Source: Haliclystus octoradiatus (taxonomy: Eukaryota; Cnidaria; Staurozoa; Stauromedusae; Haliclystidae). Taken from it: a DNA stretch of 64,000 bases. Below the pieces are notes generated by a model that saw only the letters and a list, made by a program, of their open reading frames with translations, was not told the origin of the DNA and ran no database searches. Where the stretch lies: the NCBI GenBank assembly GCA_916610825.1, contig OU744448.1, positions 22,671,032-22,735,031 of the forward strand, written 5' to 3'. The translations under genes were made by a program, and so were the position numbers. This document shows positions 41,901 through 47,900 of this stretch, in pieces; the stretch's first letter is position 1, and each line of letters starts with the position of its first letter.

Positions 41901-44900
41901 AGGTACAATTGGCGTTCACCAGAAATCTTACTTGGTGGGATGCTGGATGAGAAATCTGATATATGGTCATTGGGTGTAACACTATGGGAAATCATGGCAT
42001 TAAAATTACCATTTGATGTCGAATGCTCATATGTAAGTTACTTTTTACAATTCATTGGTACTGTAGGCCTACAGTGAATTGCTGTATAATAAAATAAATG
42101 ACTCTATATCAAAATGGATTGATTCTTGCACTGTGACCACAGACAAACAATAAGAAGGGAAAAATTAATTTAACCAAATATCTCAATTTTATTGAAATTA
42201 ATAATAACGTCTTCAGTTTTATTGCCATAAATACAAGACAATGAATTAGTGTACCGTAATAAAATGTTATTGCTTAGCAAAACTTAATTTTATAAACTTT
42301 AAAATCATCAATGCGTGCCACTGTTTTCTCGTTCATATATATAGATATGATTTTTATCAAATGTGATTCAATGCGTGCCATTGTTTTCTCGTTCATATAT
42401 ATATATGATTTTTATCAAATGTGATTTAATTTATTTTTTTAATTTCTCAGCTAATAACCCAAATGGAAAGTTCAGAATTTAAAGCATCAAATTTTCTTCG
42501 TCAAGGATCATTGTAAGTGTTTTTCATTTTTGAATGTCTCATTTTTGTGAACTTAGCTCTAATGACAAACCTAGGCCTGATCCGATCGTCTCTGGCTCAA
42601 ATCTAAATCTCATCAACTGGTGTTTTTATTCTGAACTGTATACTAAGAATTGTATAATTGAAATTCTGATTATTCTGCTTGGTAAATTCTTCAGTGGCTA
42701 GCAAGCCTCTACAATAAAATCTGGTTCAAGATTTGAAAGAGATTAGTAATACCAGTAATAAAAGCTGTATAAAATCGGGAACGTCAATCTATTTTATGGA
42801 AAATATCACCTCCCTTCTATTCATTCGATAATTGACATTGTATAACTGTATAATCAAAATGTCATCTTTGTGTATTGATGAATATTCCCGGTATACTGTG
42901 TGGTACAAATAAATTATCCATGTGATAATCACTATTTTCTTTTGCAGGAAAGGTTGTCCAAATGATCTTTACGAAATTCTTGAATCATGTTGGGCCATGA
43001 AACCACAGGTAACATTTTTTCTCATCTTCCCAATACAGAGACTTTCACGGTTTTGTGTGTGTGTCTAGAATTGTTTTTAGTTTGAACCCTCAGTTTTTTA
43101 TTTTGAATACCTCCCTCGAGCAATTTATTTATTTATTTTTACTCATATTTCTAAGGATCATATGGAGATAAGTGGCATCACTCTCTGGGAAATTAATTTT
43201 AATTATACATTGCAATAACTTGGAATTTTCTTTCGCTTTTTCTCTGCATTCCTCTGTGAAAGGTTCATGCGTTCAGGAACGTGACATTGCCCAAAAGTTC
43301 ATGAACTCTTCATGGGTTTTTGAGCAATTCAACCTTCATGAACTCATGGGTTTTTTCACTTGATTAAAATTATAGTTGTTCAAAACATGCTTATTTATTG
43401 TTTGGTTTTTGTAACAAAAATCTGGCAAATATTTACACTTTTCCTTCGAATAAATTGACGATGGTCTTGATTTGAAATTTGAAATGAAATCATTCTTGAT
43501 GATAATAATTATTAGAAATTCAAGAGGCATGTATACAAGGTGAGTTCGAAATGAGTATGTTTGATATTGAATGAATGTGTTTTATTTCTGTGAAACAACA
43601 TGATTGTTGGTTTACTTACAGAAAATTGTATCAAAATGTATTTTATATATCAAATGATTATAGGCTTTAGATATATATGAAGTGTTTTTAAGGTCTTTGT
43701 GAACTGTTCATGAGTTGCTGATTAACAACTCATAAGGTTCACAAACAGTTTGTGAACTCATTAATGACATTTTTCACAGGTAATTCATGGACTTTTATTT
43801 GAGATTTGTTTCAATTGCAGGATCGTCCCAGCGCTGATGAAATCTTAGAGGCGTTGAACAGCTTACGCCGCATTAGTAAGTTCTCTATAACTTATTTTAC
43901 TGTCAAATATGCTCATGTTATGAAGAACTTGATTGCTTGTTTATATACTCACATTTAAAAGGCTTGAATATTTTCAATTAATTCTTACCACACATAGACT
44001 AAATCATTGAGGTTATTTTATTTATCTGCAGTACCATCCAAAATACGTGATGAGAAGTTTTATAACAAGACAAGCCCGCTTGCTTATAATTTGGGCGCAA
44101 TTGAAGGCTACTCCGATACTGCAAGCGAGGTCAGTACATTTATAATCTTCTATTTAGTTTGGTGGGATGGTTTTATTCTGATATTGTTGTTTATAAGTCT
44201 CGGTGATATTATAATAAATTGTACTGGTGTGATTCCCATGAGGTTTTCTTTTTATGTAATTTCCAACGAGATTTCAACATTAGCAAATAAAATTGTGAAT
44301 AGAAAACATGATGATTTGTATCATCACTTGTTGAAAGAGGACAACTACAAGTCAGCTTTATTGTAAATTAATTGTCTTGAAATAATTTGCAACAAAAACT
44401 TTGATATCTACACTCGAAACAATAGGGTCACTGCAAAGATCACCATCGGAGTATAGATTTCTTTTCAAATATAATCTGAGATGACTAATCATCATAATGA
44501 TCAAACCATTTCAATGACACATTTTATTTTCAAACTACTACCCCTGCGAAAAACAGTTCAGGAGTTCATGAACAGTTCATGAACAGTTCATGAAAATTTG
44601 GGGCCATTTAACGTTCATGAACGGTTCATGAACTCCTGAACTGTTTTCGCAGGGGTAGTGCTTGTCTGTGTAAGCTTGCAGAAATTAGTTTTGGGTTAAT
44701 TATATGATAGGAAAGGGTTGTACATTAAAAATAATATTATAATCTTGCATGTTTGATTTTATGTAACAGATGGGCCCAAGCGGCTATGGAAAAGTCATTA
44801 GCAAACGCACAATAAGTGAAGTATCTCTTGAGCCAGTTTCAACTCTACATAGAGCTTTGTCAGATGGCGACGAATCAAGTGCAGGTCACGAAGCAAGTGG

Positions 44901-47900
44901 TAGTCGCAAGAGAACAAGAATAACAAGAGAAGAGCGTGAATTAGCTGGTTTCTTAGCAAGACTTTCGACATCTGGTTCACCACAGAGCTCAACTTCATCC
45001 TCTTTCATTACAAGAATTAAAGAAGATATAGTAGATACATCTACTATAAAAGATAATTCACCTGATAATCAAATGTCAGATGATATAAAACCAGCAAATC
45101 AAAACTCAGAAATACCAAATAAAATATCTATATATGCATTGTCAGCATCTTCACCATTGCAAAGTATCAGCAAAGAAGATAAAAACATATCTAGTCCGAA
45201 ATCTATCATCACTGCAAGACGGGATATCCCAACGAGTAAATTATCCCTTAGCAATATGATTATTAAAGAACTGTCTGAGAGAAGTCCTCATTATTTTAAT
45301 AGGGAAACATTGCTGGAAAGAGAACGGCGAAAACTAGCGGCTGAAAGACAGTCACTCAGGAACGCTGTCAGGAAACCCAATCCATTCAATATTTTCATAC
45401 ATGTACCTAATTTCAGATTTCAACCTGATTTTTTCATATTACTACCTACTAGAATTGGATTGCCACGTATTACGTTAGCGCAAGCAAATGTAATGGCTGA
45501 AAAACTTGAAATCAAATTTTTCAAAATTACGGGAAATATAATCAAACCTACACCAGTTAAACCATCAGCACCAAACTCAGAGCCAAATCCATATGTAGTT
45601 GCACCACCCCAGCAGCAGCAGCAGCCTGTTAACAAACAGAATAAAGTTCGGCGAAAGAAAGCATCTCCTATTTCACAACAAATGGTCGATACATCAGCGT
45701 ATGTACAACCAATTTCCAACATACAACCGAAATCTGAATATTCTTCATCTTCAGGATATATTTCTTCACTTCCGTCAATGGAAGAATCTGATTCATTATC
45801 ACCTATTCGACACAATGAAGGAAAATCAACTGGACCTTCTCCAGATATGTCAAATTTTATTTCCAAATTATCTGATGATATCAAATTAAGATTGTCCAGG
45901 CCAGCGGATTTGCAATTTAAAAGACTACTAGGCCAGGTATGTCTGCTGATTATCTATCTATCTTTTACCTTGAACAGTTTGTTGTCCTATAAATAAATTA
46001 CATTTATTTTGATCTTCATATTCTAAACAGTACTTGGAAAGAAACGGGAATACTTTTGAAAATCAATCAATATTCAGTCATTGAATTAAGACACTCCTCT
46101 TAATTAATTTTCAAACTTCTACATATTTTGCATTCATCTATCTGAGTAAAATGTCCCATTTATTATGATTGTGATGAATCACTAGCACAAGTAGTAACCG
46201 ATGATTTTCATGCTAGTTGGTATTCCAATGTGAAGATTCACACTTGCCATGCTTGTTGCTTATATTCAGCTTCACCACACAAGAAATATTGCGAGATAAG
46301 AATGTATTGTAGTTTTTGGGGCTGGAAGTGGAATGCTTTCAACATCCCTCTTTTGTGCATCTTGTTTTTCCAGGTGTTGTAAATAAGAATATGTTATACA
46401 AACACATACATAGAAAATGTGGTACTTCTTTTATGACTAGGTTACCTATGCTCAACTCATAAATCATCAAAAATACAATTGCCTGTTCTTTGAAGTGCAA
46501 ATTTGTGAACAAGGCCAAATGCAAGAATCAAGCAATCAGATAGATTACAGGAATGCATTGTTAATGTGTACTATTTCTTTATCCAGGGAAATTTTGGAAA
46601 AGTGTTTCAGGCATTATGGAGTGTTACTATCGACGGAGTTCCACAGAGAGTAAGTATCATCATAATTTAATTTTTTTATCCTCACATTAATACTGCAATC
46701 GTAAAGCGATGTTAAAAAGGTAGTTGCCTAGTAGTACATTTTATAGAATAGTGAGCAAAAACTATTTTAAACTTGAATGTTGAAACTATTTTGTAAGATG
46801 GAGATATTTGAAGATATTATTCAGTCGCATCTTGAAATAGTTCCTTAGAACACACTGGCTTCACTCATTTTGATTCCATTTTCTGTTTTTCGCATTGGAA
46901 ATTGCAGATTTTTTGAATGGTAGTTTTCGACAAACTTTTCATGGACTGTAGTTGTCCTTCTCCATTGCAATTCAACAATTTTAACACTCCATTTAATAAT
47001 GGTAAATAACATTGAACATACTCGTGTAGGCTATAAACAAAACATGTCATGCTGTACTGGCTTGTCACTAGCCTGCTCGCAGACTCTCTGTATATCGGAA
47101 ACCTGGTAAAACAGTAGTACTGTTCTACCACTTTTCCAATTTACAGAGTGTCTGAGAAAGGTTCATTGTCACTCAGAACCACAAATTTTGATCTTCTAAT
47201 TTTTCAACTTTTAGCTTCATGTTGCTGCAAAGGTTTTGCGAAAGGACACTCCACATTTAACTGAATCAGTAAAAGACATGAAATTGGAAGTACAGAATAT
47301 GGCAACGTTACAGAATGAATATATTGTGAAGCTTCTTGGAATAAGTTACGGTAAGTATAGATATGTGGAATAACATTATATACACTGATACCTGTATAGG
47401 GTATATAACAGCCAGCTATAAAAGGGTAGATAAATTGATCACCATATGCAGGTGACCTTTATATATATGTTTGATTCAATAGATGATGCTATTTTAGACA
47501 TTGCTAGGGTGACCACTTCAGACAGGTGGCTGATATATAGAGGTAACTGTTATATAAGATGTTTGACTGTACTTTTACCTATCTATGTTGTTTGTCTATT
47601 ATTTTTGATCTACTATTTAATGTTAAATCTATCAAAAAGTAGCAGGCCTTTACCAGGGTGAAGGAAACTGTCCTCCGCTATTTTATTGACATATTGAAGC
47701 TAACTAACTAGATGATCATGTGCACTTGCTTCTCGAGGATTCTCAACACGAAACCTACAGACAACCTACGAGATTGGCAGTATTGTTCTCAATTTCTATT
47801 TACAGTACCCCTGCGAAAAACAGTTCAGGAGTTCATGAACAGTTTATTAACGTTAAATGGCTCCAATTTTCCTGAACTGTTCTTGAACACTTCATGAACC

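What the first reader, a model, noticed from the sequence alone, without database searches (positions are those of the whole stretch)
44770..45936. JAK with a giant single-exon disordered insertion between pseudokinase and kinase
The exon adds almost 390 residues where familiar JAKs have a short linker. It is open over 1167 bases, phase 0 on both sides, and its last ten residues are the first strand of JH1, so it is not a separate gene. It has three basic clusters that could act in nuclear import or membrane binding, a Gln run, many Ser/Thr sites and one hydrophobic patch. In known JAKs JH2 docks on JH1 to hold it inactive, so a 410-residue tether would change that geometry or add a docking platform. 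This is the most unusual coding feature here.
Basis: partly seen in the sequence, partly recalled or inferred. Interest (0 to 1): 0.85.

Follow-up and report, generated by a model that had tools for sequence, protein, structure and literature searches.

The report
Jellyfish JAK-type kinase with giant linker
A stalked jellyfish's JAK-type signalling kinase appears to carry about 390 extra, probably mostly unstructured amino acids between its brake domain and its active enzyme, where human JAKs have only some 15 to 40, which makes it a natural test of how that brake works.

Summary
Confirmed in the DNA: window 44770-45936 is one open exon of 389 codons, phase 0 on both sides, with usable splice sites. 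The source is the stalked jellyfish Haliclystus octoradiatus. I rebuilt 26 exons in one frame (1,330 residues): FERM part, SH2, pseudokinase, the linker exon, and an active tyrosine kinase ending in a stop. JH2 to JH1 is 423 residues, against 33 in mouse JAK1 measured the same way. The linker is Ser/Pro-rich, has no second copy found in the genome, no Pfam match over cut-off and no PDB match, and gives a low-confidence model with a few helices.

Two cautions. JH1 sits next to EGFR rather than vertebrate JAK JH1 in small trees, though a JAK clade is not rejected.

Most likely it is a long flexible tether that weakens, without abolishing, JH2-JH1 contact and offers phosphorylation and docking sites; that function is inferred. 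No transcript or second species could be checked. New variant of a known kind.

The parts
44770..45936 (+). Linker exon, 389 codons; residues 1-376 inserted between JH2 and JH1, last 13 ([13 protein letters not shown]) begin JH1
   Evidence: Open frame, phase 0/0, splice sites, codon statistics
44032..44129 (+). Exon before the linker: 33 residues after JH2, ends [12 protein letters not shown], phase 0 out
   Evidence: donor matched by 11 of 1060 decoys
37051..43875 (+). Pseudokinase JH2, nine exons (37051-37187, 37799-37897, 38311-38459, 39609-39687, 40724-40857, 41903-42032, 42451-42512, 42948-43008, 43821-43875); HGN in place of HRD
   Evidence: PF07714 E 6.5e-40; JAK1/TYK2 alignments
46587..51958 (+). 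Active-type tyrosine kinase JH1, seven exons (46587-46649, 47215-47350, 48323-48399, 48480-48545, 49197-49351, 50612-50759, 51788-51958 with stop TAA)
   Evidence: PF07714 E 3.4e-78
34566..35474 (+). SH2 exon 34566-34806 and short exon 35426-35474
   Evidence: PF00017 E 1.2e-9
27125..32421 (+). Part of the FERM region, six exons (27125-27279, 27891-28077, 28589-28690, 29351-29476, 30865-30964, 32376-32421); first lobe and start codon not assembled
   Evidence: FERM end plus SH2 match JAK2, E 1.2e-6; PF21477 below cut-off
45595..45759 (+). Linker residues 276-330: part of the stretch holding tyrosines 275, 311, 324, 330, the Gln run and the third basic cluster (possible docking segment; inferred)
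45232..45564 (+). Linker residues 155-265: predicted helix then hydrophobic stretch, low confidence

Best explanation
The exon is a normally included coding exon of a JAK-type kinase gene in Haliclystus octoradiatus, of which I found no second copy. It lengthens the JH2-JH1 connection from a few tens of residues to about 420. The insert is a mostly disordered Ser/Pro-rich tether with a few likely helices. Most likely mechanism: JH2 can still dock on JH1 and hold it inactive, but the long tether lowers their effective local concentration roughly 10-45 fold. Restraint is then looser, can act between two kinases on a paired receptor as well as within one, and is tuned by phosphorylation of the tether and by proteins bound to it; the tyrosine-bearing stretch before JH1 would act as a built-in docking platform, an enlarged counterpart of the pTyr813 site in the JAK2 linker. 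Shown: open exon, frame, splice signals, domain order, no second copy found. Inferred: that JH2 and JH1 are spliced through this exon, disorder in the cell, loosened restraint, docking.
For: Frame, phase and splice sites. JH2-to-JH1 distance of 423 residues against 33 in mouse JAK1 (847 to 880); published linkers about 15-30 (PMC5770812, passages) or 20-40 residues (PMC10572942, passages). Of 14 in-frame alternative acceptors inside the exon only one (45613, 3.0) reaches the weakest real acceptor score (2.7). AlphaFold2 without an alignment: mean pLDDT 46.4, 273 of 389 residues under 50, helices including 53-66 and 178-200; residues 155-265 alone 53.2. Worm-like-chain estimate 0.13-0.57 mM at 423 residues against 3.3-22 mM at 33, 9- to 47-fold lower. 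Precedents: pY813 in the JAK2 JH1-JH2 linker binds LNK/SH2B3 (PMC9315936, passages); cis or trans restraint is called open (PMC5770812).
Against: No transcript was seen. The exon starts exactly with ATG after an in-frame TAA, as a separate first exon or an internal start could. With the weakest real sites of the gene as threshold there are 12 in-frame internal introns of 50 nt or more inside the exon, leaving 74-357 of its 389 residues; the one with the best acceptor is 44900-45754 (donor 3.7, acceptor 9.4, 104 residues left); with the second-weakest real sites as threshold there are none. JH1 does not group with vertebrate JAK JH1 in the best trees. Within JAK1 and TYK2, our JH2 scores higher against their JH1 (70.9, 64.3 bits) than their JH2 (50.5, 50.2). 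Disorder models used single sequences. No linker tyrosine is known to be phosphorylated.
Confidence: 0.6

Rival explanations
1. Two genes: an upstream FERM-SH2-pseudokinase gene, and a separate cytoplasmic tyrosine kinase whose first coding exon begins at ATG 44770 with a 376-residue disordered N-terminus.
For: The exon starts exactly with ATG, preceded in frame by TAA. JH1 pairs with EGFR rather than JAK JH1 in small trees, 87/89 and 90/93. The acceptor is not among the stronger ones of the gene.
Against: An acceptor matched by only 23 of 957 decoys lies exactly at the ATG, a donor matched by 11 of 1060 lies at 44129, phases agree, and no stop ends the JH2 frame before that donor. The JAK domain order would be broken by chance just here.
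Confidence: 0.12
2. Neutral expansion: one gene as modelled, but the insert is filler with no regulatory role, tolerated because JH2 and JH1 still find each other.
For: No known domain in it; low-complexity features; the chain estimate leaves effective concentration at 0.13-0.57 mM.
Against: 389 codons stay open; in-frame codon score exceeds all 394 intron windows; but the synonymous-only score gives no signal.
Confidence: 0.2
3. The exon is shortened in most transcripts by an internal intron, so the usual protein has a much shorter linker.
For: 12 in-frame internal introns of 50 nt or more exist at the weakest-real-site threshold, leaving 74-357 residues; 44900-45754 has an acceptor of 9.4.
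Against: None at the second-weakest threshold; only 3 of 38 internal GTs reach the weakest real donor. Even the largest removal leaves 74 exon residues, so the linker stays longer than in JAK1. Skipping the whole exon is in phase but removes the first JH1 strand.
Confidence: 0.08

Closest known systems
Vertebrate JAK1, JAK2, JAK3 and TYK2
   Same: Order FERM-SH2-pseudokinase-kinase; HGN in the JH2 catalytic loop and a shared TR.(E/D)..(E/Q)R..W..PE stretch with JAK1 JH2; two adjacent activation-loop tyrosines; seven extra residues where JAKs carry a longer insert after helix F
   Different: JH2-JH1 connection of 423 residues, not about 15-40; JH1 lacks FWYAPE and the full insert and sits nearer EGFR in small trees
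EGFR-family kinase domain
   Same: JH1 identity 39.6% over 265 aligned positions, against 37.3% over 263 to JAK1 JH1; shared stretches such as PIKW.A.ESIL and SY..TVWE
   Different: In the model FERM part, SH2 and pseudokinase lie upstream and I saw no receptor part (not searched for). PMC8662651 (passages) tabulates EGFR as emerging in bilaterians
FAK/PYK2 (FERM tyrosine kinases)
   Same: FERM C-lobe model PF21477 matches weakly, E 2e-4, below cut-off; PYK2 kinase scores as EGFR does against JH1, 183.8 bits; activation loop YYKAS (FAK row recalled)
   Different: FAK has no SH2 or pseudokinase (recalled)

Membership tests
JAK | N-terminal FERM | tested here: inconclusive
   FERM end plus SH2 match JAK2 at E 1.2e-6 over query 157-333, but a RASA1 SH2-containing chain follows at 2.4e-6; PF21477 below cut-off; first lobe not assembled; PF18379 search did not complete
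JAK | SH2 between FERM and the kinases | tested here: met
   PF00017 E 1.2e-9, 38.6 bits against cut-off 21
JAK | Pseudokinase JH2 with altered catalytic loop | tested here: met
   HGN for HRD, DCC for DFG. But our JH2 scores higher against JAK1/TYK2 JH1 than JH2, and the tree holds the JH2s together only at 65/77 on a long branch
JAK | Active C-terminal tyrosine kinase JH1 on the same polypeptide as JH2 | tested here: inconclusive
   Catalytic Lys, HRD and DFG present; joining to JH2 rests on splice signals, no transcript
JAK | JH1 groups with JAK JH1 | tested here: inconclusive
   Best trees pair it with EGFR (87/89, 90/93); JAK clade not rejected, p-AU 0.236 and 0.332; no cnidarian or sponge JAK in the trees
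JAK | JH1 FWYAPE stretch (seen in the three vertebrate JAKs compared; typical rather than defining) | tested here: not met
   KWHAIES here
JAK | JH2-JH1 linker of about 15-40 residues (usual, not defining) | tested here: not met
   423 against 33 residues; published lengths
JAK | Acts with cytokine receptors and STAT | not testable with these tools
   STAT_bind search found 0 matches, but its controls never rang, so absence is not shown; PF01017 and PF21354 searches unanswered
EGFR | JH1 belongs to the EGFR family | tested here: inconclusive
   Best-tree pairing 87/89 and 90/93, not at the starred level; single EGFR row; long branch

The most novel reading that the evidence does not exclude
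The linker makes this a kinase whose brake works mainly between partner molecules: about 420 flexible residues let JH1 reach and be held by the JH2 of the other kinase on a receptor pair, while the linker itself serves as a docking scaffold. A bolder form: an internal start at the ATG at 44770 also makes a free, unbraked kinase with basic, nuclear-import-like clusters, so one locus yields both a braked and an unbraked kinase.
Probability: 0.1. Interest if true: 0.8.

Novelty: new variant of a known kind. Interest (0 to 1): 0.5.

Why it matters
Whether JH2 restrains JH1 within one JAK or across two is described as an open question, and linker length is part of that argument (PMC5770812, passages). 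A natural JAK-type kinase with a linker more than ten times longer would make it testable by adding and removing length. It also bears on whether cnidarians have a full JAK: PMC13203501 says in one place that JAK was detected in Coelenterata and in another that it was not, and PMC8662651 tabulates JAK as emerging in vertebrates, while this staurozoan has a FERM part, SH2, pseudokinase and kinase in that order.

Tried and rejected
Chance open frame: rejected. Transposon-derived or repeated exon: no second match of the linker protein in the genome (2 candidates, 1 match, itself); in the exon only short two-copy matches and a CAG run; the repeat element lies in the neighbouring intron (44537-44659), not in the exon. 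Known domain in the insert: no Pfam family over cut-off (one weak match, Rgr-1_C, E 0.099) and no PDB match up to E 10 for the exon or its 92-residue helix-and-hydrophobic segment. By eye I saw a likeness of residues around 231-256 to a small-GTPase end; searches do not support it, so it is dropped. Known RNA family in the window: 0 matches at gathering scores.

A second JAK in the genome as an in-genome control: not found. Apart from this gene's own exons, the best JH2 match is 32% identical, at C10, the best FERM-SH2 match has E 0.011, and JH1's longer matches elsewhere are 34-41% identical with short exon matches up to 52%. These searches read exon by exon and score only the best candidates. 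Fold searches of the linker models were not run because confidence was too low.

A note written during the work named 44900-45754 as the only in-frame internal intron; the recount corrects that to 12 at the weakest-site threshold and none at the next. Effective-concentration numbers are generic chain estimates with assumed persistence lengths and end distances.

Literature: nine searches. Among the papers listed (5-20 per search, the best-ranked of far larger sets in most) none was seen to describe a JAK with a long JH2-JH1 insert or a staurozoan JAK; the library holds open-licence papers only, so this is no proof of absence. I saw passages only of PMC13203501, PMC9975415, PMC11193209, PMC6723221, PMC3723955, PMC5770812, PMC9315936, PMC10572942 and PMC8662651; PMC7535936 had no hit for JAK; PMC3670263 is not held; PMC6599738 was seen in a listing with the start of its abstract.

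Trees have 9, 14, 10 and 13 rows. In one search six of the eight own-genome kinase loci were tried; four (L001, L002, L006, L008) were dropped because my translation of the stretch gave stops (most likely the wrong strand), L003 and L007 were kept, and L007 was removed before for its long branch. No cnidarian or sponge JAK is in the trees, so the EGFR pairing may be a sampling or long-branch effect.
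Full report
The window comes from the stalked jellyfish Haliclystus octoradiatus. The genome handle holds 261,861,806 bases in 33 contigs and contig C1 is 39,977,743 bases; the published assembly has 33 scaffolds, 261,898,343 bp, a longest chromosome of 39,977,743 bp and an 18.3 kb mitochondrion (PMC9975415, passages; C33 is 18,316 bases). The totals differ by about 37 kb, which I did not explain. The mitochondrial contig reads in code 4, with two tRNA genes found.

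The exon is real as DNA. Positions 44770-45936 are open over 389 codons, flanked by a usable acceptor and a strong donor, phase 0 on both sides. An open run of this size is far outside chance (409 codons against at most 166 in 30 simulated windows), and its in-frame codon score exceeds all 394 overlapping intron windows. The signal is in the first two codon positions: a synonymous-only score gives none, and one reverse-strand frame scores the same.

Around it I rebuilt 26 exons in one frame, 1,330 residues: six FERM exons, the SH2 exon and a short exon, nine pseudokinase exons, a 33-residue exon, the linker exon and seven kinase exons to a stop. The first FERM lobe and the start codon were not assembled. 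The FERM end plus SH2 match JAK2 best in the PDB (E 1.2e-6), with a RASA1 SH2 chain next (2.4e-6) and JAK1 after it. JH2 has HGN for HRD and shares a TR..(C/I)(I/L).R..W..PE-like stretch with JAK1 JH2, but its score is higher against the JH1 than the JH2 of JAK1 and TYK2. JH1 has the lysine, HRD and DFG of an active kinase. No close second copy of FERM-SH2, JH2 or JH1 was found in the genome.

The insertion is large. From the LNSL end of JH2 to the LG of the JH1 glycine loop there are 423 residues, against 33 in mouse JAK1. Published lengths are about 15-30 (PMC5770812, passages) or 20-40 (PMC10572942, passages).

The insert has no Pfam family above cut-off and no PDB relative. It is 15% Ser and 8.5% Pro, net charge +16, with nine [ST]P sites and seven tyrosines, four of them between residues 275 and 330. 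AlphaFold2 on the single sequence gives mean pLDDT 46.4, with helices including residues 53-66 and 178-200; residues 155-265 folded alone give 53.2. Disorder is likely but not proven.

One gene or two? It does not: it shows only that the exon belongs with JH1. The exon starts exactly with ATG, after an in-frame TAA. For one gene: only 23 of 957 decoy AGs score as high as the acceptor at that point, 11 of 1060 decoy GTs as high as the donor at 44129, the phases match, and no stop ends the JH2 frame before that donor. Against: the acceptor is not among the stronger ones of the gene. I put one gene at about 0.85, a judgement.

Alternative splicing cannot be excluded. Of 14 in-frame alternative acceptors inside the exon one reaches the weakest real score, and skipping the exon would remove the first JH1 strand. 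With the weakest real sites as threshold there are 12 in-frame internal introns, leaving 74-357 of the 389 residues; with the second-weakest there are none.

JAK membership is provisional. JH1 is 39.6% identical to EGFR and 37.3% to JAK1 JH1, pairs with EGFR in trees (87/89, 90/93) and lacks FWYAPE; a JAK clade is not rejected (p-AU 0.236, 0.332). JAK is called historically difficult to place (PMC8662651, passages). By domain order it should work like a JAK; by JH1 sequence its family is unresolved.

Mechanism. A chain estimate lowers the effective JH1 concentration at JH2 9- to 47-fold, to 0.13-0.57 mM, so cis docking would be weakened rather than lost and trans docking becomes more competitive. 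The JAK2 linker already carries a docking tyrosine, Y813, that binds LNK/SH2B3 (PMC9315936, passages). A longer tether with several tyrosines and many Ser/Thr sites is most simply an enlarged version of that regulatory segment. This is inference; neutral expansion is a real rival.

Novelty: among the papers listed by nine searches none was seen to describe a JAK with such a linker or a staurozoan JAK. New variant of a known kind, pending transcripts and a second species.

Noticed in passing
window 12729, 14130, 23473, 40205, 40978, 44544, 47811, 50225, 54592, 56268: Ten copies (up to 3 mismatches; none in 100 shuffles) of a 30-base arm of an inverted-repeat element rich in GTTCATGAAC; the copy at 44537-44659 has paired arms and lies in the intron just before the linker exon.
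   Followed up: partly
window 12031-12618 and 22591-23326: Two simple-repeat tracts of about 0.6-0.7 kb that give long artefactual open frames in several frames.
   Followed up: no
window 46587-51958: JH1 resembles the EGFR kinase domain more than vertebrate JAK JH1 in small trees, although the gene has JAK-like upstream domains.
   Followed up: partly
G000:C7:5291601-5440615: Six kinase-domain matches, each with one in-frame TGA, within about 150 kb; four share the same score, so a recent tandem array seems likely.
   Followed up: no
G000:C33 (L011 1-1101, L012 8495-9115): Open frames at both ends of the mitochondrial contig look like a DNA polymerase (by eye and recall, not searched); only two tRNA genes were found.
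   Followed up: no
window 9484-9873 (-), 5342-5728 (-), 11447-11782 (-), 20156-20476 (-): Open frames of 106-129 codons on the minus strand; no Pfam family over cut-off.
   Followed up: partly
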